A stretch of 64,000 bases of DNA from Hanleya hanleyi (taxonomy: Eukaryota; Mollusca; Polyplacophora; Lepidopleurida; Hanleyidae), in NCBI GenBank assembly GCA_036873755.1, contig JAVTVY010018879.1, positions 1 through 64,000 on the forward strand, in the 5' to 3' direction. The position numbers and the translations under genes were made by a program. Below are positions 5,291-39,357 of the stretch, in pieces. The first letter of the stretch is position 1. Each line of letters starts with the position of its first letter. The notes below the pieces were generated by a model. The model was not told the origin of the DNA and made no database searches. It saw only the letters and a list, made by a program, of their open reading frames with translations.

Positions 5291-6150
5291 CCTTGATAAG
5301 GGTTTAATCCTAGTTTAGGGGTGAAGTCTGTGTTCCTTTTTTTGTATTTCTGAGAAAAATCCTCATTTTACATGAACCTACGCATGACTGGATAGGCAGA
5401 CCCTGATAAACCCGGAAACTGATGTTAGCCCTTTTGGATAGGGCTGATAGGTGTTTTCCCCTAGTTTAGGGGTAAAGTCCGTGTTCTGCTTTTTATATTT
5501 TCGGGACAAATCCTAAATTTACATACACCCACTCCTCCACTCTCTCAACAGGCCCCAATAAGCCAGGGATCAATATTTGCCCTTTGGGATAGGGTTGATA
5601 GGAGTTTTCCCCTTTTGTAAGTGTCAAGTCCATGTTCCGCCGTTTATATGTTCGGGACAAATCCTAATTTTACATACACTCACTTTCCCACTCTCTCAGC
5701 AGACCCTGGTAAGCCAGGGACCGATATTAGCCCTTTGGGATAGGGATGATCAGGGTTTTCCCCTAGTGTAGGAGTAAAGTGCATGTTTCACTTTTTATAT
5801 TTTCTGGACAATTCTTAATTTTACATACACCCACTCCAGGCAGAACCCAATAAGCCTGGGGACCAATATTAGCCCTTTAGCATACGGTTGATAGCAGTTT
5901 TCCTCTATTGTAGAGGTAAAGTCTGTGTTCCGCCTTTTATATTTTCGGGACAAATCCTAATTTTACATACATCCACTCCCCCACTCTCTCAGCAGGCCCC
6001 AAAAAGCCAGGAACTGATATTAACTCTTAACTCTTTGGGATAGGGTTGATAGAGATTTTCCCATAGTGTGGGAATAAAGTCTATGTTCCACTTTTTAATA
6101 TTTTTCAGACAAATCCTAATTTTACATACACCCATCCATGACTTCCAAAA
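5290..6150 (+). repeat. ~150-bp tandem array, six units
   Basis: The landmark 'aaatcctaattttacata' occurs at about 5358, 5508, 5659, 5809, 5952 and 6111, giving spacings of 150, 151, 150, 143 and 159 bp. Each unit reads 'tttgggatagggttgatag', 'ttttcccctagt.taggg', 'gtccgtgttc', 'ttcgggacaaatcc' and 'cactctctcagcag'. A single unit in reverse orientation occurs at about 26.99-27.16 kb. No protein-coding sense is apparent. Confidence 0.85.
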
Positions 6151-7789: not shown

Positions 7790-8610
7790 CTTTAGAAGAT
7801 CTTACGGAAAAACTTGATGCTAAAGGTCACATACCGTACAGACATGTATCCACATGGGATTTCTCAACTCTCTATACTACAATCCATCATCAGGACCATG
7901 GGATGTTTCTTTGTTTATAGAGTTGCTTGAATTTCTCACTAAAAATATTTATGTGAAATTTGGCAACACAATATATCAGCAGCATATAGGTATTCCAATG
8001 GGTACTAATTGTACACCCCTGTTGGCCGACCTGTATCTGTTCTCTTATGAATATGACTATATGCAGGCGCTTTCAAAAACCGATCCATTCAAAGCCCATT
8101 CCTTCTCATTCACCAAACGCTATATAGACGATCTTCTCACTGTGGATAATCGCTATATAAATGACGCAGTGAAGGTTATATATCCACCTTCACTGGATTT
8201 AAAGGAAACTACAGATAGCCTTACAGGCACATGTTATTTAGATCTCTATCTCTATAAAAATGAAGCGGGCATTCTCTCTCGTCGACTTTATGACAAAAGA
8301 GATGATTACAATTTCGACATCGTAAACTATCCCTTTCTGGATAGTAATATTCCAGTTGGACCCGCATATGGTTTATACATATCTCGCTTAGTAGCATTTG
8401 CTAGATCCTGTGTTAAATGTGATGATTTTAATCAACATCACAAAACATTATTCCACCAAACGCCTCCACTCGAAGTTTCTCAAATTTGGCGATACATATC
8501 GCATGCTGATAGCAAAATACAAACGTAACATGCAAGATCTATGGCGCTACATTTCATAACTTGTGTCTAATTCCGCTTAACCTGGGGCTAGGGGTCGTAT
8601 TAACCCATGT
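7790..8610 (+). pseudogene. Reverse-transcriptase relic (Penelope-like or related retroelement)
   Basis: This is a decayed reverse-transcriptase domain. The finger/palm motif WDFSTLYTTI is read at about 7855-7885 in one frame. The frame then shifts by one, and the ORF 7854-8528 continues with NIYVKFG, the conserved GIPMGTNCTPLLADLYL block, the catalytic RYIDDLL (YIDD at 8121-8132), and a thumb-like section containing LYDKRDDYNF and PAYGLYISRL. This motif order is known from a large family of invertebrate RT proteins that I associate tentatively with Penelope-like elements; a GIY-YIG domain is not visible. The 3' end (to about 8610) carries the 'ctaattccgcttaacc...ctaggggtcgt' core shared with the 508-bp array. 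A second, worse copy lies at 40.65-41.2 kb. The frame break and missing ends make it non-functional. Confidence 0.8.
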
Positions 8611-11319: not shown

Positions 11320-14300
11320 ATGGCAACCGCACGTAAGGTTCCTAAGACGAACGAAGCTAATCCCACAGAAGATACCGTTATCAGTTTTATACATCAGGTT
11401 TCATCCATTAAAATCAGTTCATCGTACAACAGATACTTCAATTTCACCTTTCAAGCTGACAAGAAAGAATATTTTGACGCTGTCTGCTTTGGTGACGAAA
11501 AAAGAACAGAAATGGTGACGGCTGCAAACAGTTCAAAACCGCTTCGTTTACAACATATAACCAGATCACTCAGTAAGTACTGCAAAGCCCTTCCAACTAT
11601 AGTGACATCAAGAAGCTGCCTTCAGCCCCCACTTTGCAGGCTCATCTGAAAAACACAAAATATCCTCCGTATAAAAAACATTGAACAGACTGAAATAATT
11701 TATACACTTTCTAAATGTTACGATATGCTCAACATCTAAGCCAATGCAGTGTGATTTGATTAGTCCATTCATGAAGAAGACTTTCTGGTCGTAAAGTACT
11801 GAAGCACATTATATCTCGTAAACTGATCAATGAAATCACATTTTCATTCTACTATGTTCATTTTAATGATTTTTCCCATTCTCTATGATACAATGAAGTC
11901 ACTAAGGGATTTTTCTCCCTCTGAAAGGTCTAATTTTAACACAGAAGTAAATGAAAAAAACTTTTAAAAAGTCTAGTTCAGCTCTGATTTTAACACATAA
12001 TTTAAACAGATGTACTATCTTTTACTTCGTCAAATTGTAGAAATTTATCTCGAGTATGAGAGAAGATTTTTAGCAAAAACATGTTATGCTCCATTCAGGC
12101 CCAAGTTAAAAATTCCCCAGTTACACGGGTGGCAATCACGGCAGTGTAATTGATAAAACAACTGATCCTTTGTTTAGAACCGCTGTTACTTCCGTTATAT
12201 CTAAAACAATAATTATTCTTATGTTTATTTTTATTTTCAGATCAAACAGATGGTACAAAATATAAAATCTTATGTAACCGCAAAACAACAATAACCCCTA
12301 TGGATAGAAAGAATGTCAACTTTAGATCTAAAATCCCACCAGATTATGAAAAGAAAACACTACAACAAGTTAAAGAACATGGAACCATTGGACATTGGAT
12401 AAGTATCCTCACTTGTTATTACTCGCATTATTTGTCTTACACCAGATACAAATACAGCAGACATTATTGCATTTATTTTTATATATCTAGCCGAACTTAC
12501 AGCTCAGACTATGTCTCCACAACAGATCTGCTAACTAACAGCAGAAAATATCATGGCCGCATATTGTATTTATTTCACATCTGCCAGAAAGTTTTAAATT
12601 ACAATTTTGTACAGTCTCTTCAATACAATTTTATTCAAAGAAGATAGTAAATCAACGAATGCATAATATTATATCTGAGTTTTCTGATTATGTGTTGAAA
12701 AACTACTAACACAGCATTATAATGTCATCAGGAATTATATCACATATAATATCCGTACTCTCTAAAAAACTTGAGTGAACTGTTCCACTCAAGCTTGAGT
12801 GAGTTACTTTTCACTCAACTTGAGTTACTTTTCTGTCAACTCCAATTAAAACCACTCAAGTTCACTCAACTTAAATGGAATCAATTTCCACTCCTATACT
12901 TCAGTAAATCTCACTCAAGTTGAATGCATTTAACTCAAGTTAAGTGAAAAGTAACTCAAGTTGAGTGAAAATCTCGCTCAACTATTGAGTAAGATAAATT
13001 TCCACTCTTACTAGAGTAACATTTCATATAACTTTTTTAGAGAGTAATATTATATCTAAGTTTTCTGATCGTCTGTTGAAAAAAAAACTGAACACAAGAT
13101 TACAATGTTATGAGGAATTATATCACATTGATATTATAGAATCATACTGTATTAACATACTGTCTTTAACAAAAATACAACCTTCATACGATATCAAAAT
13201 TATCAATTTCGCCCTCTTTAGCTAGCCGAACTATCATGGTTGTCAACTTCAGCATCAAATGCAACTTGGCTTACTTTATATGAACAGCCATCATCATTCA
13301 CATTTTCATTTCATAATATTTTTTTCTCAGTTTTACGGCAATAATTTTGCTAACAATTTTTAACCCTGATCTAATTTTGCCCGAACTGTATTGTCATTAA
13401 TTAAATCCGTCCTTCCACACATATGTCAGCTGCATATCTTTAAACGATACTACTAACAATTCCTAATTTGATAAGCTTACCTACCTTATCAAACAATAAA
13501 CTCCTGCGGATAATTGATCTGATTGCTATGGTAACATACTGATAAATGATCTTACTGTGTACTTTCTTAAAATCTCTGAATTCTTTGTTATTCTAATACT
13601 GCTGATATTTAAATTTTCTTTACTTTTCTTAAACATCTTCGATAATACCATTTCCATTCAAAGCGAATTTGTTTGCGGTTGCTTTTCCTCTCAACTTGTT
13701 TCTTTCCAATTGTTCTACCTAGCACTGAGGTCAAACTATGGCATGTCTATGTCAAACCTTTCTATTTATGAGTCCGACTACACCATGCCTAGGTCAAACA
13801 GATGCGCTTATCATCAGATAATCAGTGGTGGTTTCAATCGCATTATATTAATTCTTGCTCAAACATCTGCTGTATAAAACATGGTCAATGGCACTAAAAT
13901 CACAATTTTTACATTGAATATATCTTATGACAGAGACATTGAAATCAGAGTAGCATTTCTAAGTCGAAAATACTTGCTTATCATATGACAATAAGCAAAA
14001 CCTACTTGATACTATCTCAAATTCGTTAAATTCTATTCACTCACTCACTATCTCAAATTCTCATTTGAAATATGCAATTCAATAATATGTCCTGATAAAT
14101 TTACTGAAGCTTCTATTTCAATATAGTTCTATAAAACACTGAATTCATAAATACTATATTGCAATGTTCTTTCACTCTATTCACAGACTACAGTCGAGGC
14201 AAAAGTCACTGCAGTACACGAGCCAATAACAAGGAAAACAATGACTGGAGAAGAGGTACTTTTGGGTAAATGTAATATATCTGATGACACCTGTACCCTT

Positions 14301-14897
14301 GAACTGGCTGTCTGGGGTCAAGAAGACCAGGCAAAATTAACACTGAATTCAAGTTATAAGTTCACACGGTTAACAATCAAACAATATGAAGGCTTAAAAT
14401 TTTTAAGCTTTTCCAAACTTACAGAATTGATACAAATTGAAGATTTAGGAAAAGTTGATTCAACAGAACCTGAGCAGCCAATTTTGAAAACCACAACAGG
14501 TGAAATCATGATGGTAGACTGCTCAACAACTTATCACTGTCGTTCTTGCAAAAAAATGCTTCCAAATTTGTCTGACTGTAACAATTTTATTAAATGCCAA
14601 AATTGCAGAATGACACAAAAGCCAGAAACTCTACAACCAAACACTACAGTCAAACTTGTTTTGGAAGACAACAACACAAAATATACAATACACCACGATA
14701 CTGTAGTAGATCTTTTGAAAACATTCAATAAAACCAACCTACTTCAGGATCCAGAGGACTTGGAAGCATTCATTTTCTCATTACATGTTGTCACCATTGA
14801 ATCAACAATGAATGATATCGTTACAACAGTTTCAAAAAAACCAGCCACCTCAAATCTGCCAAATACTAACACACCTAATAACCATCCTGATACATGA
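11320..14897 (+). CDS. OB-fold/RPA-like DNA-binding protein with Cys4 zinc ribbon (predicted, three exons)
   Basis: I predict three coding exons: 11320-11572, 12241-12402 and 14194-14897. Donors are GTAAGT at 11573 and GTATCC at 12403. Acceptors are 'ttttattttcag' ending 12240 and 'ttcacagactacag' ending 14193. With these junctions the frame stays open for 373 codons (372 residues). Choosing the nearby AG at 14186 instead breaks the frame. Exon 1 starts MATARKVPKTNEANP and contains a YFNFTFQADKKEYFDAVCFG strand pattern, exon 2 is basic, and exon 3 has TCTLELAVWGQED and LKFLSFSKLTEL, typical OB-fold strands. A zinc ribbon follows with C254/C257 and C273/C276 (YHCRSC and KCQNC). The layout resembles RPA1-type OB folds plus the RPA zinc ribbon; single-stranded-DNA binding is inferred. 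Lineage-expanded uncharacterised proteins of this kind are common in aquatic invertebrates. A MITE lies in the second intron. Confidence 0.7.
12660..13136. repeat. ~90-bp flanking duplication around the intronic MITE
   Basis: 12661-12755 ('aatattatatctgagttttctg...aggaattatatcacat') is repeated at 13046-13136 with about 80% identity. The MITE lies exactly between the two copies. Either the MITE landed at the junction of a tandem duplication, or both flanks belong to a larger composite element. Confidence 0.6.
12756..13046. mobile_element. MITE with 15-bp terminal inverted repeats and internal 'actcaagttgagt' foldback
   Basis: The left end reads TACTCTCTAAAAAAC and the right end is its near-perfect reverse complement (TTTTTTAGAGAGTA). 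The 291-bp interior is built almost wholly of palindromic 'cactcaacttgagtt' variants, so the transcript could fold into a long hairpin. It has no coding capacity. It lies in the second intron of the OB-fold gene. Confidence 0.75.
13137..14160 (+). other. Remainder of intron 2 of the OB-fold gene
   Basis: AT-rich sequence without protein-like open frames. The open stretch 13557-13877 is hydrophobic low-complexity translation and is not supported as an exon. Confidence 0.5.
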
Positions 14898-17823: not shown

Positions 17824-18290
17824 TCTCCAGTCTAGCTCACTAGCTTTCCTGGTATCTCCTTATCGCATCATTGATTCTAATACTTCACACCACTCGTATC
17901 TGCAGATGAAAAGGAACAAAACCATGTTGGGATTCCAAGTTGACGCAACATCGCAACCAAATGTTTTTGTGCAGCTTGCCAAAATGGTAACGTTCCTCGG
18001 ATAGCTTTCAGAAATTTGTAGCACTAGTCACATTTTAAAATGTCTTTTAACGGCTCATTCTCTATCAACATTTGTGCATTTATTGTTCTCTCGCTTCCGG
18101 TTCCTTTGCACAGTGCAATTGAGACTCTACTCTTCACTTGATGTACTTCAGAGTTTAGACTTGAACTGAGAATAGAATATGAATCTATATTCATTACAAA
18201 CCCATTGTCTGCACCCATTAAACAACAATGGATATACCTGGCTAATGATATCTTACTCTGACGTTCATCACTTAAGAGTTGGAACGCGTC
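17824..18290. other. Unrecognised stretch
   Basis: I see nothing supportable; the 167-residue minus-strand open frame that ends here (18024-18527) runs into the neighbouring array and is an artefact. Confidence 0.4.
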
Positions 18291-26994: not shown

Positions 26995-27160
26995 TGAGTA
27001 GACCTAGGGGCTAATATCGGTCTCTGACTTATCGGGGTCTACCGACAGAGACAGGGTGGAGGAGTGGGTGCATGTGAAATTCGGATTTGTCCCGAAAATA
27101 TAAAAAGCGGAACACGGACTTTATCCCTAAAATATGGGAAACCCCTATCAACCAGGTCTA
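26995..27160 (-). repeat. Single inverted copy of the 150-bp array unit
   Basis: 'ggatttgtcccgaaaatata', 'cggaacacggactttatccc' and 'gctaatatcggtctctgac' are reverse complements of the unit landmarks in the array at 5.29-6.15 kb. Confidence 0.75.
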
Positions 27161-27189
27161 GAGGGTCATATATACACCGGAGAGAGAAC

Positions 27190-27790
27190 AACAACAACAA
27201 GTGTTCATATAGTTTATTATCCCCTTCCGTACATCATACACACGCTGGAGGAGCCACGTTGGATATGTTTACAATACAAGTAGGCTCTTGTCCAATCAGA
27301 AGCCGCCATTTGGCGCTGCATCTGTCATATTCGTTCTTGCCTGTTAGATGTAATCTCGGCTGCTCTTATCCAATCAAAAACCGTCCTTTGAGAAAGTTCA
27401 ATGTTCGGTCATGTTCGCTCTAATCCGTATGTTCTAATCCTGGCCGGTCAGACCAGGATATTGTTCAGGCAGCATGTCCTGAAACAGTTGTTTGCATGGG
27501 GCACGGGAATGGACGTCTTGGGGTCGCGATGAGCCAGTATTGGGCGTACTGGGTCGGGCATATTGCACGTTTTTAGAATACGCTTGCTTTTATGAATAGT
27601 AACGCCCGCCCACGTCCACCTTAACGCTTCAACGCCCTGGTAAATTAGACCAAAAGCTCTCATTTTCATGGAATTGTCACTAATCCATCGAAATGCAGTG
27701 ACGCCCGTCAACGCCCACCGCTGCGCCTTAACGCCCATCTCAACGCCTTTGTTGATGATCACGCCAACAATTATGTTCTATTACGTTACG
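27190..27790 (-). pseudogene. Zinc-finger unit, copy 1 (truncated)
   Basis: This is a shortened member of the unit family described for 29.82-30.76 kb. Reading leftwards on the minus strand there is a GGCGTT-rich control region (27600-27780), an 'attcataaaagc' TATA-like box at about 27585-27596, an ATG at 27561, and a short frame to the stop at 27448. The poly(A) signal AATAAA is at 27213-27218. The 37-residue frame starts MPDPVRPIL and is read out of phase with the family. In the family phase its end would read FQDMLPEQYPGL, the same as copy 2. The zinc finger, acidic region and most of the C-terminal domain are deleted. Confidence 0.65.
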
Positions 27791-27800
27791 GCGTAATTAT

Positions 27801-28025
27801 CTATTGTAACATTATGGTGTACACATCAATTATAACGTAATGACGTTCACCGTGAACACGTAGATAGATTCTAGACCAACCGTGAGCGTAGTACGTATCT
27901 AAGCTTCCAACTGACAACTTCGTCAGTTGCTTAATGTTATTCATATTCGACAGATGTATTCTACTTCAATAAACCGACATTGAGTATCTCAGTATATTCA
28001 ACTCGTCAGTCTTCATTCTGTCCAT
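27801..28025 (-). CDS. Small unrecognised ORF with array-TATA promoter and one in-frame TGA
   Basis: On the minus strand a GCGTTAAGG array (28070-28150) and a TATATATA box (about 28055-28063) precede an ATG at 28025 by about 30 bases. The frame reads MDRMKTDELNILRYSMSVY, meets TGA at 27966-27968, and continues in the same frame through NMNNIKQLTKLSVGSLDTYY and VHGERHYVIIDVYTIM to TAG at 27801. The control layout is the same as in the zinc-finger units, but the coding sequence is unrelated to them. I do not recognise the protein. A competing reading is a solo LTR on the plus strand: it would begin TGTAACATT near 27805, has AATAAA at about 27968 and would end near 28072, but no target duplication is visible. 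Confidence 0.35.
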
Positions 28026-28069
28026 TTTAATTCACAACGATAAGTCTCTACCCATATATATACGATTCG

Positions 28070-28150
28070 ACAGCCTTAACGCCTATGTTAACACCATAAC
28101 GCCCTATTTGAACACCTTAACGCCCTAGAATAACGCATTGACGCCATGAT
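28070..28150 (-). promoter_or_regulatory. GGCGTTAAGG array upstream of the small ORF
   Basis: On the minus strand 'ggcgtcaatgcg', 'gggcgttaaggtgtt', 'gggcgttatggtgtt' and 'ggcgttaaggct' follow each other at about 18-bp spacing. The same motif precedes each zinc-finger unit in sense orientation. Confidence 0.5.
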
Positions 28151-28154
28151 GTAG

Positions 28155-29080
28155 ACAGGTGAGAGAACAACAACAACAAGGATGACAGGTCAATCATTCT
28201 ATTATTCCCTCCAGTACGTCATACCCACACCGGGGGAGCCGCGTTGGGTATGTTTACTATTCAAGAAAACTCTTGTTCAATCACAAGCCGTCCTTTGAGA
28301 AAGTTTAATCTTCGGGGATGTTCGATCTCATCCATTTGTTCTAATCGTCGTCGGTCAGGCCAGGATATTGTTCGGGCAGCATGTCTTGAAACATTTGTTT
28401 GCGCATTCTTATTGCATTTTCCAGGGCCTCGATGGGTGGTAACCCCATATCCTCTTCCAAGTGACGCTTGGTCTTCATGATGGGCCTGTGCGTGCGGTCG
28501 CCTTTCATTTCAAGCGGCAGCAGGCTATACCGTTTATAGATGGCCATGACAGTTTTTCGGATGCAGGGCTGCATTTCGGTGCACGCCTGTTGTAAGTTAT
28601 CCTGTCCGCCGTCTTCGATTACCGCAGCATAACTATGAATAGCCTCATGCACAATACCATCCTAGAAGTAGGTTCTGCCTCACTGGGATGTAAGCTGACT
28701 ATCTGATGGCAAGCTCTCCGTATCAGTAGATGGACTCTCAGCAATCTCGGTTTCGGTATCAATCGGTGAACTATCATCAGTCTCTGTATCGGCTTCTTGT
28801 GCCTCGGAGTCTTCAACGGTATCAGTCGGTGGACTCTCATCAGTCTCTGTGTCGGCTTCTTGTGCCTCGGAGTCTTCAATCCCATGTATATTTGTCTTGT
28901 GTCGCACTCACAGCAAGTATAAGCCATGTTGACGGTTGAACGTGGATTTTGCGCGTTTTGTAGACAGTAACGCCCGTCAACGTTTAGCTTATCGCTTCAA
29001 CGCCCTGGTGAACGCCCGTCGTAACGCCTTAACGACCTATCTTTACGCCTTAACGCCCGTCTCAACACGCTATTACGCAG
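28155..29080 (-). pseudogene. Zinc-finger unit, copy 2
   Basis: This is a homologous unit on the minus strand, with a GGCGTT-rich control region at 28965-29070 and an ATG at 28927. The start reads MAYTCCEC, the first Cys pair of a C2H2 finger. About 35 bases of the finger are then missing, and the His half (RHKTNIHG) is in another frame. Next come two repeats of DSEAQEADTETDE and Ser/Thr/Asp-rich sequence to 28680. After a second frame break, 28652-28341 encodes MHEAIHSYAAVIEDGGQDN, IRKTVMAIYKRYSLLPLEMKG, KTKRHLEEDMGLPP and FQDMLPEQYPGLTDDD. The C-terminal domain is better preserved than in copy 3. The TATA box is degenerate ('ctacaaaacg'). I do not recognise the C-terminal domain. Confidence 0.65.
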
Positions 29081-29087
29081 ATTTCTG

Positions 29088-29820
29088 TCAATCAAACTTT
29101 TCTTTAGTCTTCACCTGCAGTTGATATAAAATTTGGGCTTCTGATTGTTTGAAGTTTTTTGGGACATATAGTATCTCTTTCTCATCAATACGAGGAGAAA
29201 AACAACTATGTACTCGTGTGTGAACATTGTGCTTAGTTAGCCGTCTCGCTTTCGGAAGATATGGAGGCATTGAAGAGCCGTTCTTTTCTGTCACTGTAAG
29301 ACGGAAATGTCATTGCCACAGCGTCAGGGTCAATAGGGCAAAGACCTTTGTGAGGCCAACGAACCGTCACTGGTTCCGGCGTGAGCGCTCGTGGTCTATA
29401 GGTCGGGCATCAAGGATGGCTGTCATAGTTCAGTAGTGGTGGGTGATAGCACACCTCTCCATCGAGTCCACTCTGTCGAGGGCCGCTTCTGTCAACTCTT
29501 TCAGGATCTGGCGCTCAAGTCGATGCTATTATTGATACAGCTCAAGGTGGGATCACCGAGACCGCTCAGCACCAGCGCATGCGTTGTCATCTTATCACGC
29601 TCATAGATGACATCCAATTAGTGACACGGGTATGTCTTCTGCTGCATAAGAAACAAGATAGTACCCAAAGAGGATACCAACAAACCTAACCGTGCCAAGA
29701 ATCTTCTGACCCTGCTTAATGCATTTCAAACCTTTATGGGGACGCAGCTGGAGACGGGATAATGATGTCCGTCCATAGATGATCGACAATGCATAAGGCG
29801 CTGGGATAGGACGTTAAGGT
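29088..29820 (-). pseudogene. Unrecognised decayed coding relic between the inverted zinc-finger units
   Basis: Protein-like stretches alternate among the three minus-strand frames. Examples are GRTSLSRLQLRPHKGLKCI and KILGTVRFVGILFGYYLVSY (29789-29601), then YERDKMTTHALVLSGLGDPT near 29590-29540, a Pro-rich PEPVTVRWPHKGLCPIDPD near 29350-29310, and PYLPKARRLTKHNVHT (29294-29088). This looks like one gene broken by at least three frame changes. No family is recognised. It runs opposite to copy 3 and shares the spacer that holds the copy 3 promoter. Confidence 0.35.
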
Positions 29821-29965
29821 GTTGAGACGGGCGTTAAGGCGTGACGATGGGCGTTGACGGGCGTCACCGCATTTCGATGAATTAGTGGCAATTTCATGGA
29901 TATCTAGAAAATCATGTCTTCCGAGCTATTTCACCAGGGCGAGGAAGCGTTGACGGGCGTTACTG
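29805..29965 (+). promoter_or_regulatory. GGCGTT-rich control region of zinc-finger unit 3
   Basis: 'ggacgttaaggtgttgag', 'acgggcgttaaggcgtgac', 'gatgggcgttgacgggcgtc' and 'gcgttgacgggcgttactg' lead into the TATA box. The region aligns with the control region of copy 1 over about 150 bases, including the non-repetitive 'gcatttcgatgaattagtgg' part. Conservation outside the coding region suggests duplicated promoters. Confidence 0.55.
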
Positions 29966-29975
29966 TATATAAAAG
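29966..29975 (+). promoter_or_regulatory. TATA box of zinc-finger unit 3
   Basis: TATATAAAAG lies about 55 bases before the ATG at 30021. A start site near 29995 would exclude the in-frame ATG at 29994, which argues that translation starts at 30021 (MGYTCSEC). That ATG is the one conserved in copy 2. Confidence 0.6.
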
Positions 29976-30020
29976 CAGGGGTATCCCAAAAACGTGGACA
30001 GTCGAAGTTCAACCGTCAAT

Positions 30021-30605
30021 ATGGGTTATACATGCTCTGAGTGCGAACGCCCGTTCACCAGACATTACGATATGATGCGGCTCCAGAAGAATATACATGG
30101 AATTGAAGAACCTGAGGAGTCCATTGAGGCGAATGCTGATACAGAGGCTGCTGAGAGTCCATCGACTGATACCGAAACGGGGACTGCTGAGAGTCTATCT
30201 ACTGATACGGCGAGCATGACCTCAGATAGTCGGCCTACATCTCAAGGAAGTGAGAAAGAACCTACCCTTTGGGATCGTATTGTGCATGGAGCTATTAATA
30301 GCTATGCTGCGATAATCAAAGACGCCTGACAGGATATCTCACAACAGGCGTACATTCAAATGCGCCCCTGCATCAGAAAAACAGCCATGGCCATCTATGA
30401 ACAGTATAGCCTACTCCCGCTTGAAATGAAAGGCGACCCCACGCACAGGTCCATCATGAAGACCAAGCGTCACATGAAAGAGGATATGAGGTTACCACCT
30501 ACTGAGGTCCTGAAAATGCGATCAGAATGCGCAAACAACAGTTTCAGGGCATGCTACCTCAACGATATCCTGGCCTGCCCGACGATGCTTAGGTTACACC
30601 GAACA
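30021..30605 (+). pseudogene. Zinc-finger unit, copy 3 (C2H2 finger, acidic region, unknown C-terminal domain)
   Basis: This is the best-preserved unit. The protein starts MGYTCSECERPFTRHYDMM and then LQKNIHG. That is a C2H2 finger with C-x2-C, but its first His reads Leu; copy 2 keeps RHKTNIHG. Residues of about 25-85 are rich in Glu, Ser, Thr and Asp (repeated ESPSTDTET). A conserved domain follows: WDRIVHGAINSYAAIIKD, CIRKTAMAIYEQYSLLPLEMKG and IMKTKRHMKEDMRLPP. An in-frame TGA (30327-30329), where copy 2 has GGA, and a one-base loss near 30514 disrupt it. After the shift the end reads FQGMLPQRYPGLPDDA. The consensus protein would be about 200 residues. A nuclear DNA-binding role is inferred from the finger only. 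Confidence 0.65.
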
Positions 30606-30714
30606 AAGATTGAACTTTCTGAATTGGCGGCTTCTGATTGGACAAGAGCCTACTTGATTTGTAAACATACCCAACGCGTCTCCCCCAGGATGGATATGAT
30701 GTACTGAAGGGGAT

Positions 30715-30720
30715 AATAAA
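30715..30720 (+). terminator. Poly(A) signal of zinc-finger unit 3
   Basis: AATAAA follows 'gatgtactgaaggggat', and the same context with AATAAA occurs in copy 1 on the minus strand. The 3' untranslated region ('cttctgattggacaagagcc') is conserved between copies 1 and 3. Confidence 0.55.
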
Positions 30721-30774
30721 CTGTATGAACACTTATGAACGTGTTGATCTTTCTTTCTCTCAACTGTTTGCATA

Positions 30775-30930
30775 ATGGTGTCCGGACGTTATGCTAGAGC
30801 GTAAAGGTGTTCAGATAGGGTGTTAAGGCGTTAAGATAGGCGTTAAGGCGTTAAGATAAGGCGTTAAGACAGGGCGTTAAGGCTTTACTGTAAAACATGG
30901 CAAATGTACCGGGCTTCTGCTTTCTTTACT
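30775..30930 (+). promoter_or_regulatory. Fifth GGCGTTAAGG array with TATA-less start remnant
   Basis: 'ggcgttaaggcgttaagata' is repeated four times between about 30820 and 30890 and runs into 'ctttactgtaaaacATGGC'. The ATG opens a frame of only 12 codons. The layout copies the promoters of the other units, so this is probably the remains of a further unit whose body is gone. Confidence 0.45.
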
Positions 30931-31074
30931 ACTAAGGGGCAACTGGACTTTAAATAGGAATTTTCTGTTTCTGATGACGTCTTATTAGTCTTCCCCACAT
31001 GGTACAATAGCGGACCCTTGGGAAGAAGGACAACTCATCTCAAAACTCCAACCTTAAATGCTCGTTCTATACTT

Positions 31075-31565
31075 CTCCACGGATGCGCATGCGCGCCATA
31101 CCCCTACTTCCACGATCCACCAGTCCAGTCGGATGGTCCGATACGATACTTCCCACAACCCAATCGGACCATTATGGGTCCACCTCGACTCCCAAACTTG
31201 CATTCCAATGCCCTTTTCCCACCATTCCCTTTCTGCACATGCGCAGAATGTTGAAATCGGACGACACATTAGTCCAGTTAGATGGTTCTCCACGAGAGCT
31301 TCACGATGACGCCTCAAACGACCCAATCGGACCACGAATGATCTACTTCGACCCAACAACGCCCCTTTCAATACCCTTTTTCTACTGCGCATGCACAGAA
31401 TGCCGTCAGTTTTATCCTACACACATTCAGTTGGATGCTTCCCCACGAGTGCTTCCCAATGACACCTCACACGACCCAATCTGCCTACTATGGGTCCACC
31501 TAGACCCCAAAATGTCCACCCCAGCGCTACTTGCCCAGTGCGCATGCGCACGGTAGCTTTTCAAA
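31075..31565. repeat. ~151-bp tandem array with TGCGCATGCGC landmarks
   Basis: 'gcgcatgcgc' and variants occur at about 31084, 31236, 31387 and 31540, at about 151-bp spacing. Between them lie 'cagttggatg.ttcccacga', 'cacctcaaacgacccaatcg' and 'gaccattatgggtccacc'. The 157-residue open frame over the array is an artefact. Confidence 0.75.
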
Positions 31566-31570
31566 AAATT

Positions 31571-31930
31571 TCAACGCTTGCCCTCGAGACCCCACCCATT
31601 GTGTTTTACAGCTCGAGATGAAGAAAACAAGGAGTCACAACCCATACCAAAAATGTCCATGAGTGGCTTTCCCAGTGGAAGGAACATTGTCCACTGCACC
31701 AGAATAGACCAATCCTGTTCACCACTGACCTTTCTGAACTTTTCAAAAAATTTCACCGCATGGCTTCGAGATCCCTCCCATCGTTTTGTACAGCTCGAGA
31801 CGAAGAAAACAAGGGGCCACACCATATACCGCAAATGTTCATGAGTGGGTTGGCTTCTAGACCAATCCCATCGTGTTCTACATCACGAGACGAAGAAAAC
31901 AAGATGCCACACCCCATAGTAAAATCCGCA
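31571..31930. repeat. ~100-200-bp degenerate tandem repeat
   Basis: 'ctcgagatgaagaaaacaag' type phrases occur at about 31612, 31793 and 31887, each followed by '.gccacacccatacc' and a 'tgttcatgagtggcttt' phrase. Confidence 0.6.
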
Positions 31931-33466: not shown

Positions 33467-33695
33467 AAAGCGCGTCTTTGGTCATGTTGATCTAAAACAT
33501 TTGCATATGATCCGTGTGACGTCACTTCCGGTTCCAGGCACGTGATCGGAAATGCCCCTTGACCATGGCCGCCATTTTAACCGATTTTGTGCGTATGCGC
33601 AAGGTCGCAGGTCATTTCCGGTCTCGTGCCCGGAACCGGAAGTGACGTCACAGAGGTCATATGCAATTTTTTTAGGTCAATATGACAAAAGATGC
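33467..33695. mobile_element. Foldback element, ~100-bp arms
   Basis: 'gtgacgtcacttccggttcc' on the left (about 33517) pairs with 'ggaaccggaagtgacgtcac' on the right (about 33634). Similarity extends outwards through 'tttgcatatga.c' / 'gtcatatgcaa' to the ends. The centre lies near 33582. No coding capacity; a MITE-like foldback. Confidence 0.7.
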
Positions 33696-36513: not shown

Positions 36514-38986
36514 TTATCGGGCCATCGCGTCCAGCAGTCTCGCCCAGAAAATACGTTCATCTACGGGATCCTCCCTCCACAGAAGAAACGTCATGTGCTT
36601 CCACATGTTCAACAAGGATCTCGGTACTTACGAACTGGTATCTCTCCCAATAGAACTGCGATGATTACGTCATCCCTGCCCCTCTGTACCGCACGCATAC
36701 TCGCCATCTGAATCTCAAATTCTCCCCAATCACAAGACAAATATTTCCTGGTTATTACAAGGATAATCTTTCTGCTGGAATTCACAGCGTCGACGATGTT
36801 TTGCTGGATGCTTTCCCCTACAGGGAAGTCTCTATGGTGGAGGCACAATCGATACCGTTCTTTCCCCTCCTCAAGGGCGTTCCTAAGGCGAAAGCATGCC
36901 CAGTTGTAGTCTTCATGGTTGTATGCCACAAACGCGTCAAAAGGATATTGGTCATCAGTGATAAGTTCATACTCCGGGTTACGTCTGCACTTGGTGAGGA
37001 ACCAGTATTTTATGTTCCATCGGAATCTGTAGCAAACTATACTGACAACTATTCCAACTCCAACAACACAGCCCAACGATATGGTGAATGTCAACCAGAA
37101 GTGACTCGTACAACCGACGCTGAAGTCTCTAAACTCATTTTTCAGATGCAAGAGTGATATCTGTGTACCATTTTCAAAGTAGCAAGAAGACCTACTGATA
37201 TCATGAGAAGTCTCACGACTTTCTAGTAGCCACTGTGTAAATGTCACAGTCTTACAGATGCAAGCGAATGGGTTTCCGTGGGTGGTAATAATACATTTGT
37301 CTGTGCGCTGTCGAAAAAACGCCATCTGTACAATCCATTTTCGTTCTTCCTCGTCGAATGTTGTGATAGAGTTGTAGGACAAATCAAGTGAACACAGAGA
37401 GGTTGAACTTCGAATCGCTGGCATCGAACGCAGAAGCTTGTTATTGCTTACGTCAAGCGTTTCAAGCGGCAGACCGGTAAAAACGTCTGGATGCAAGTAA
37501 CTGATTCCATTGTCCGCCAGATCCAATATATTCAATTTAGGGGCAACTTTGAAAAATCTTCCTTCAGTGTCTCTTTCCAGAACCAAGTTTAGGTTAGCGT
37601 CGCGTGCAATAAAGATTCTCAGTTCGGGATAGCAGCCAAAGGTGGTTACTTGCATTTCAGTGAGTTTCCAGCCGGATATATTAAAAACTTCCAACCGTGG
37701 CCAGATTCGATTTGTCAACAAATTTGCACTTACCCCGCTCCATTCTCCTCCATATGCCATGTCTAAAACCATCACATTCGAAATTAGGACAAAGTGGAAG
37801 TTAATGATTGGGTTATAGCTACAATTGAAGGAATCAATGTAATGGTATGGCTTCCTATCATACAGGGAACGATGTTTTTCTCCGGCCCAAAACCGAAATT
37901 CGGAAATCCCTTTAGTCCAACTGATATCCACTCGTCGAAAATTAGGAAAGTTGAAAAGGTTTCCGATAAGGAGGTAATATTCGCCGGATACGACATTGTT
38001 CAACTTGAAATTAAAATTTAGAAGACAGTCATAGTATTTGAAGGTGTTTCTAGTGAACACCCTGAGGCTGAAATGATATTATTTTCGCTGAGGTCAATGG
38101 TTTGCACGCAGATGTTCGCTAAATATTTCACGGTGTCCCACCTGAGACGAAAGTTATCAACGTTTGAATCTCCATTCTGCCAGTCGCGGTTTACGCCGCT
38201 CAACACGATGCTGGTCATGTTACGATGTTCCAAGCCGCCTAGACTCATTAATGCAGCTTTCACACCGAGAAACTAGAATAATAATATTTTTGATCTTCAA
38301 TAACTTGGAAAATGCCATAGGATGAGCATACCAGACTTTTTCAATACTGATTGTATGTATGCTGGAATTCTCCAATGAATCAAGGTGACTTCAGAATTTT
38401 TACAGTATATGGATGTGCATTTGATGTGCAGCTTCTCTAGGAAAGTCATCATGGCGAATCCCGATCCGAATTCCAGGTTGGAGTTGTAATTCGATGGTTT
38501 TGTGAGGGACAGTTCTCGTACATTTTTGAGTGGCAGATAGAATTCCTCGATCTCTGGGCACCAAATCCATGAGCTAACCCAATCTTGCTCGAAATGCAGC
38601 ACTTTCAAAGACGGTACGGAAATTAGCAGAGAAGGCGGATACGAGTACGTGTTACATAAATAAATCTCGTTTCCTCGTAGGTCAAAATAACACAAACTAG
38701 CTAGGCCCAATAAAGCTTTCTCTTCTATAAGTCTTATGGAGTTATACGATAGGTCAAGATACTGGAGTGTGTTCATCTTGGACAAGCACTGAGACGGTAG
38801 AACCGCCAAGTAGTTGTGGGAAAGATTGAGCTTCACGGTGTCTTCGGGAATATCCTGCGGGACTTTCGCTAGCCCTTGTCTGCTCGCATCAAATGTTGTC
38901 CCGTTTTCCACGGCGCAGTATTCAGTAGTCCATACCATTTGTGATTGCAGAGACAAGAAGAATACAGCAATCGTCAGCGAGTCCAT
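36514..38986 (-). pseudogene. Toll-like receptor pseudogene (LRR, LRRCT, TM, TIR)
   Basis: Translation would start at 38986 (MDSLTIAVFFLSLQSQMVW, a signal peptide). A good splice acceptor, 'ttcatttttcattcag', lies just upstream, as expected for a 5'-UTR intron. LRRs follow, such as KLNLSHNYLAVLP and LQYLDLSYNSIRLI. The frame breaks near 38392, 38290 and 38068. From 38060 to 36609 one long frame reads LRRs (LNILDLADNGISYL, LETLDVSNNKLL, LCSLDLSYNSI), one Cys-rich C-terminal cap (NPFACICKTVTFTQWL), a membrane segment (FWLTFTISLGCVVGVGIVV), and the TIR domain: box 1 FDAFVAYNHED and box 2 HHRDFPVGESIQ. A fourth break near 36618 separates TIR box 3 (ERIFWARLLDAM), stop at 36514. With a single Cys cap it is a vertebrate-like (V-type) TLR. 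It would have been a membrane pathogen sensor; as it stands the ectodomain and TIR end are disrupted. Confidence 0.85.
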
Positions 38987-39357
38987 TCTGTGCTCCTGAA
39001 TGAAAAATGAATTATTTGTTATTAATTGACAGTTGACCCGATTGTAAACCATTCCAAGTTAACCTCAGATGTTCGAGGCTACCTCATTGGAGAAAGCCAA
39101 CAATATGGAAGAAAGCATCGAAAGCATAACCTTGTTTATTAAATATCTGGACCCAGTATCAATTGTATATATTACAGTAGAATACATACTTTTCCCGCCC
39201 CTTAAACAAAACGCATGGATAGGGTCAATTATATTCTGTAACAGTATATTCGAAGAGAAAATATGCTCCGGCGTGATTATAAACAGTAGGGGAAAAGGGA
39301 GAGTTCGACGACAGCTGCGGAGCCGACGGTGCAGCAATAGCATCATAAGTAGGTCAT

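What the first reader, a model, noticed from the sequence alone, without database searches (positions are those of the whole stretch)
27190..30930. Cluster of small gene units sharing one promoter design, possibly a decayed multi-gene mobile or virus-like element
Seen: three homologous units (minus 27.2-27.8, minus 28.2-29.1, plus 29.8-30.8 kb) share, in part, a GGCGTTAAGG-type array in sense orientation, a TATA-like box, a short ORF and an AATAAA signal. A sequence-unrelated ORF (27801-28025, minus) has the same array-TATA-ATG layout, and a fifth array at 30.8 kb leads into an empty ATG. Shared promoters over unrelated ORFs are unusual for ordinary host genes and are typical of gene sets in large mobile elements or DNA viruses. 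Inference: a relic of such an element.
Basis: partly seen in the sequence, partly recalled or inferred. Interest (0 to 1): 0.85.

Follow-up and report, generated by a model that had tools for sequence, protein, structure and literature searches.

The report
Decayed fragment of virus-like jumping DNA
In what is probably a chiton genome, this stretch is the broken remains of a virus-like mobile element whose genes, including one that looks like a DNA-packaging motor, occur elsewhere in the same genome in many and often unbroken copies.

Summary
Fifteen of 16 near-matches to GGCGTTAAGG in 64 kb lie at 27.6-30.9 kb (1.75 expected), in arrays with 20-21-bp phasing, in sense with the gene behind. 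Two claims fail: "ORF 27801-28025" has a stop inside, and arrays D and E are one array duplicated with the gene.

In the window's own genome (2.48 Gb) the decamer occurs 25,483 times; a reversed control 1,234. Better copies show the source, a multi-gene element. L034 spans 8.05 kb with 490-bp inverted repeats and an exact 6-bp target duplication; it encodes a C2H2-ATPase (Walker motifs), gene X, array, gene 1 and a weakly PC4-like ORF. The window holds gene X-array-gene 1-array plus two more gene-1 copies, all broken. A polymerase-type gene, known by motif only, exists in the same genome.

Polinton-like, not filed as Polinton: 8 kb, no integrase or capsid recognised.

The parts
27170..27749 (-). 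Unit A: internally deleted gene-1 copy; promoter/array 27566-27749 and 3' end 27170-27495; poly-A signal at 27218
28074..28146 (-). Array D, downstream of unit B (counterpart of array E), followed by TATATATA at 28062; no open gene behind it
28149..28959 (-). Unit B: gene-1 copy broken by frameshifts and stops; coding remains 28344-28952; C-terminal 106-aa frame 28344-28661 open
28960..29068 (-). Promoter array of unit B; TATA region lost by deletion
29516..29759 (+). Gene X remnant, 70-77% amino-acid identity to gene X of L034 over 47 and 37 residues, broken
29795..29985 (+). Promoter array of unit C with TATATAAAAG at 29966
30021..30586 (+). Unit C: gene-1 copy (N-terminal C2H2-type finger with one ligand position changed, acidic linker, C-terminal part), with an in-frame stop and a later frameshift; poly-A signal at 30715
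30787..30882 (+). Array E, downstream array of unit C; no gene detected directly behind it
31054..31924 (.). Tandem repeats (about 153/163 bp and 182/90 bp); similar sequence in 15 of the 25 loci compared
33516..33651 (.). About 136 bp with 74-76% identity to part of the L034 terminal inverted repeat; possible end fragment (inference)

Best explanation
The stretch is a decayed fragment of a virus-like DNA mobile element: gene X, phased array, gene 1, second array, tandem repeats (plus strand), with two further gene-1 copies, one inverted against the first and one internally deleted. Elsewhere in the same genome the element carries an ATPase gene with a C2H2 finger, gene X, gene 1 and a further ORF, between terminal inverted repeats that start AGTAGT and 6-bp target duplications. 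Mechanism: insertion by an integrase or transposase (shown: inverted repeats and target duplications; inferred: the enzyme, not seen); copying by an element-type DNA polymerase (a gene of that look is in the genome; its use is inferred); gene 1 is a small C2H2 protein made from a TATA promoter behind a 20-21-bp phased array. Most likely a zinc-finger protein of the element binds that array cooperatively and controls gene 1 (inferred; no test).
For: Genome-wide excess of the decamer: 25,483 against 1,234 for the reversed control. Gene 1: 150 scored matches (the window's own included), all E below 1e-51, 137 without stops (counted by eye), out of 31,713 loose first-look candidates. ATPase: 108 scored (the query's own included), 88-100% identical, 88 without stops (by eye), out of 38,366 first-look candidates. 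ATPase upstream of gene 1 on the same strand in 6 of 6 fetched loci that have the ATPase; three of these six (L033-L035) had been picked for gene 1. Nine contigs occur in both capped lists (by eye); in seven, gene 1 lies on the same strand 0.6-1.5 kb downstream of the ATPase, in two (C18578, C18558) on the other strand. The window's 29519-30643 is collinear with L033-L035 at 76-77% over about 1.15 kb. Inverted repeats with target duplications (by eye): L034 TACGGC 6/6 (ATPase, gene X, gene 1); L013 2908-7176 TACACG/TACAAG 5/6 (ATPase piece, gene 1, arrays); L028 GATGAT 6/6 (arrays, no tested gene); L019 GCGGTC/GTGGTC 5/6 (arrays, short polymerase-type hits); L013 125-2068 TCCATG 6/6 (no tested gene inside, only a similar terminus). 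Homology between units extends past the poly-A site, so they are DNA-level copies.
Against: No terminal repeats or target duplication were found around the window's own fragment, so its boundaries are unknown. The window has no match to the element's ATPase, PC4-like, polymerase-type or polymerase frames. Seven of 20 array-bearing loci have none of the tested genes. Of 17 loci with long inverted repeats printed, only four show a duplication-like flank (L013, L019, L028, L034); L023, with 99% inverted arms, does not, nor does L030, which carries ATPase and gene 1. No integrase, capsid or protease was recognised. Six-frame Pfam scans of 9-51 kb of the window found no capsid, polymerase or integrase at E 0.01, but Pfam also failed on the polymerase-type gene of L038, so that negative is weak. 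B against C gives dN/dS 0.61 in the C-terminal block and about 1 elsewhere, no clear selection. The regulatory role of the array is untested.
Confidence: 0.82

Rival explanations
1. A tandem or inverted duplication cluster of an ordinary host zinc-finger gene, now pseudogenes.
For: The three units lie within 3.6 kb and are DNA-level duplicates.
Against: All 150 scored matches in the genome are strong and lie on many contigs; linkage to the ATPase gene, inverted repeats and target duplications.
Confidence: 0.04
2. The arrays are a dispersed minisatellite or foldback-type repeat with long inverted arms, and the genes are passengers caught in some copies.
For: 7 of 20 array loci have none of the tested genes; long inverted arms of up to 4.5 kb in several loci; L028 has arrays in its inverted arms and no tested gene.
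Against: In the window the arrays are all in sense; in L033-L035 the array lies before the TATA-like box and ATG of gene 1; gene 1 is in 12 of 20 array loci. Gene-poor copies can be non-autonomous derivatives of the same element.
Confidence: 0.1
3. A sharper form of the best explanation: a true member of the Polinton/Maverick group, i.e. a capsid-coding virus, whose small copies are deletion derivatives.
For: AG-starting inverted repeats and 6-bp target duplications (that these are Polinton hallmarks is recalled); ATPase with Walker-type motifs and a weak Pox_A32 match; a gene with polymerase-type motifs in the same genome.
Against: 8 kb instead of 15-20 kb; no capsid, protease or integrase recognised; Pox_A32 only E 0.0078, below cut-off; no Pfam polymerase match at E 0.1.
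Confidence: 0.45

Closest known systems
Polinton/Maverick self-synthesizing transposons
   Same: Terminal inverted repeats, 6-bp target duplication (recalled as Polinton hallmark), packaging-type ATPase gene (by motif), a polymerase-type gene in the same genome (by motif)
   Different: The one copy bounded at both ends with several genes is only 8 kb; no integrase, protease or capsid recognised; C2H2 finger on the ATPase protein; phased array before one small gene; long inverted arms with tandem repeats in other copies
Endogenous mavirus-like elements (EMALEs), eLife 2021 e72674 (passages read)
   Same: Virus-like integrated elements examined for promoter motifs upstream of their ORFs
   Different: There a short motif such as TCTA in one element type; here a long phased array before one gene
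Foldback-type (long inverted repeat) elements (recalled)
   Same: Long inverted arms containing tandem repeats
   Different: Gene-bearing copies with an ATPase of viral type
SV40 21-bp promoter repeats / plasmid iterons (recalled)
   Same: About 21-bp spacing, two helix turns, beside a promoter
   Different: Analogy of layout only; no sequence relation tested

Membership tests
Polinton/Maverick | Terminal inverted repeats and 6-bp target duplication (hallmark recalled) | tested here: met
   By eye: L034, L028 and one element in L013 6/6; another in L013 and one in L019 5/6; the other 13 of 17 loci printed show none. Not testable at the window's own fragment.
Polinton/Maverick | Packaging ATPase | tested here: inconclusive
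   Walker A GPTGCGKTS and an LDDLM motif (motif recognition recalled); Pox_A32 E 0.0078 for L034, below the curated cut-off, and not listed for L035
[quoted passage not shown]
   Broken gene in L038 with DFEAL, GFNSGRYD, DANALYLW, GNGYYG, DTDSAY (motif recognition recalled); no Pfam polymerase match, no PDB polymerase match; only a short N-terminal-type fragment lies in an ATPase/gene-1 copy (L033)
Polinton/Maverick | Retroviral-type integrase | tested here: inconclusive
   None recognised by eye among the ORFs of L033-L034; L035 has retroelement frames next to the copy; no dedicated search was run
Polinton/Maverick | Capsid proteins and protease | tested here: inconclusive
   None recognised in L034; Pfam was run on its four main ORFs only; larger copies not surveyed
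Polinton/Maverick | Length 15-20 kb or more | tested here: not met
   L034 is 8.05 kb between target duplications
   sense array before gene 1 only in L033-L035

The most novel reading that the evidence does not exclude
A lineage of virus-derived, self-copying elements that has split its hallmark proteins into stand-alone 'shadow' zinc-finger genes and amplified them massively. One small gene (ORF320, with C2H2 fingers) resembles the N-terminal part of the polymerase-type gene, without the catalytic part (60% identity over 156 aa; commonest open frame 320 aa among 150 scored copies). Gene 1 is a C2H2 protein without the ATPase part: its finger aligns with that of the ATPase protein (E-value not in view), and its C-terminus resembles the ATPase's C-terminus by eye only (blastp did not report it). 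Such short proteins could act as regulators or inhibitors of the full-length ones, with the phased array as their operator.
Probability: 0.25. Interest if true: 0.78.

Novelty: new variant of a known kind. Interest (0 to 1): 0.6.

Why it matters
Polintons are described as large elements with polymerase, ATPase, protease and capsid genes. Here a compact version of about 8 kb, with many intact frames, appears to have spread very widely in a mollusc genome. If so, it might account for part of the 'unclassified' repeats of such genomes (14% in the chiton Liolophura japonica: PMC11068029, passages read; whether this family is in that species was not tested). It would also give a system for asking whether pieces of virus genes became regulators of the element.

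Tried and rejected
Protein homologues outside the genome: none at E 1 for unit C or unit B. The database seems poor in animal proteins: a TLR query gave 4 hits at E 1e-5, 3 of them from the chiton Liolophura sinensis, so this negative is weak. Viral contigs: none by protein; three array-pattern matches were read around the match and look unrelated. Genome contigs: one Pectobacterium match, not read, taken as chance. Rfam and tRNA scans of the window: none. AlphaFold model of the B C-terminus: helical but mean pLDDT 57; viral fold matches all E above 1 among the 50 shown of 97, disregarded. Papers: searches listed none that by title or abstract describes this array; 14 papers hold the bare decamer, seen as a listing only. 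Passages were read of PMC11068029, PMC8547959, PMC6431247 and PMC4046053. Pfam scans of the window gave, besides TIR and LRR, only weak RNase_H and Helitron_like_N. The filler in unit A resembles the 31.47-kb repeat only weakly (score 42 against a shuffle maximum of 39 in 500). Weak similarity of region D to unit C (16 of 1000 shuffles as good) was rejected as chance. A polymerase-family search (PF03175), a search with the PC4-like ORF, one with the inverted-repeat end and one for polymerase copies did not complete.
Full report
OBSERVATION. The window is animal DNA. A TLR-like frame at 36609-37772 (Pfam TIR and LRR) has 4 relatives at E 1e-5 in the protein database, 3 from the chiton Liolophura sinensis at 35-57% identity, so a chiton or a close mollusc is likely (inference). 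At 27.2-30.9 kb there are three homologous units. Units B and C are 80% identical over 731 bp, including the poly-A region and the next array. Unit A keeps only the promoter and the 3' end. The GGCGTTAAGG sites are far more than chance (16 in the window, 15 here, 1.75 expected). In units B, C and E their grammar is regular: cores in pairs 8 bp apart, the next pair 12-13 bp on; D has 21-bp steps; A is irregular; all five arrays are in sense. Seventeen pairs lie at 20-21 bp against at most 10 in 5000 random placements.

CORRECTIONS. The frame 27801-28025 is broken. Arrays D and E are the same downstream array in the two copies of one duplicated cassette, and no similarity was detected between what follows them. 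A further gene remnant, gene X, lies at 29516-29759.

GENOME. The window is part of a 2.48-Gb assembly of 52,793 contigs. The decamer occurs 25,483 times, the reversed control 1,234 times. The gene-1 C-terminus gave 31,713 loose first-look candidates; the best 150 were scored, all at E below 1e-51, 137 without stops (by eye). First-look numbers are not confirmed copies. Twenty loci were fetched around array hits, picked by me from the first 100 places listed. Gene 1 was found in 12 (in L032 a 21-aa stretch only), the ATPase in 3 of these, only a polymerase-type ORF in one, and none of the tested genes in 7. Several loci hold gene 1 as an inverted pair (for example L015, L021, L023), like units B and C in the window.

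THE ELEMENT. Three copies picked for similar gene-1 scores are 95% identical over 3.9-4.8 kb. They show the order: ATPase gene with an N-terminal C2H2 finger (381 and 406 aa in L034 and L035, broken in L033), gene X (111-121 aa), array, gene 1 (176 aa), tandem repeats; further on L034 has a 340-aa ORF, and L033 instead the start of a polymerase-type ORF. L034 is bounded by 490-bp inverted repeats at 97% with target duplication TACGGC; its span is 8054 bp. Other inverted-repeat pairs give duplications of 6/6 (L028; L013 125-2068) and 5/6 (L013 2908-7176; L019). Of these only L013 2908-7176 also holds ATPase and gene-1 pieces; L028 and L019 hold arrays; L013 125-2068 holds none of the tested genes. 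The other 13 of 17 loci printed show none, by eye. The ATPase gave 38,366 first-look candidates; 108 were scored, 88-100% identical, 88 without stops (by eye). Pfam support is weak: C2H2 fingers, Pox_A32 at E 0.0078 (L034 only) and PC4 at E 0.003, all below cut-off. Walker-type motifs can be read in the sequence (recognition from memory).

POLYMERASE. A 128-aa piece of a polymerase-type ORF gave 29,210 first-look candidates; 150 were scored, 77-100% identical, with 320 aa the commonest open frame. That ORF has C2H2 fingers. In L037 and L038 a related N-terminus (60% over 156 aa) is followed by frames carrying motifs that I recognise from memory as exonuclease and palm motifs of B-family polymerases. 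Pfam found no polymerase at E 0.1. PDB searches matched the Vsr endonuclease at E 0.03 within that frame and nothing convincing for the palm part (best E 1.8). The gene is broken in L038, L037 has no array core, and its place in the same element rests on a short fragment in L033.

PROMOTERS. Upstream 260 bp of ATG: 6-7 sense cores for gene 1 in L033, L034 and L035; none for the ATPase (L034, L035), the PC4-like ORF (L034) or the polymerase-type ORF (L033); one for gene X (L034). TATA-like boxes lie at -39 (gene X), -53 (gene 1), -73 (PC4-like ORF) and -107 (polymerase-type ORF). One antisense core lies about 110 bp upstream of the L034 ATPase. The sense array is therefore a gene-1 feature in these copies, not a design shared by all genes.

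READING. The window is a decayed fragment of this element: gene X, array and gene 1 in the same order, 76-77% identical to L033-L035 over 1.15 kb, then a second array and repeats, with two further gene-1 copies. It lacks the ATPase and the other ORFs, and its ends were not found. Whether the element is a Polinton is open: size and unrecognised genes speak against, termini and ATPase for. It is not filed there. Autoregulation through the array is the most likely function but untested.

Noticed in passing
window 36609-39052 (-): TLR-like LRR and TIR frames, apparently a broken or exon-split Toll-like receptor gene
   Followed up: partly
window 7854-8528 (+): Frame resembling a Penelope- or LINE-type reverse transcriptase by eye; no Pfam match at E 0.5
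   Followed up: no
window 14241-14897 (+) and about 17895-18038 (-): RPA-like frame (by eye) and a weak Helitron_like_N match: possible decayed Helitron
   Followed up: no
L038 879-3095: Vsr-endonuclease-like stretch (E 0.03) inside the polymerase-type frame: a possible nuclease embedded in the polymerase
   Followed up: partly
G000 contig C29142, 88847-105981: Four ATPase copies on one strand, three of them about 3.7 kb apart: possible tandem insertion
   Followed up: no
L023 114-9690: Near-perfect palindrome with 4.56-kb arms at 99%, each arm with a gene-1 copy, without target duplication; real or an assembly artefact
   Followed up: no
L035 7064-10001: Gag-pol-like retroelement frames (by eye) directly beside an element copy
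   Followed up: no
window 27008-27153: A different dispersed repeat, also at 5293-6134, abuts unit A
   Followed up: no
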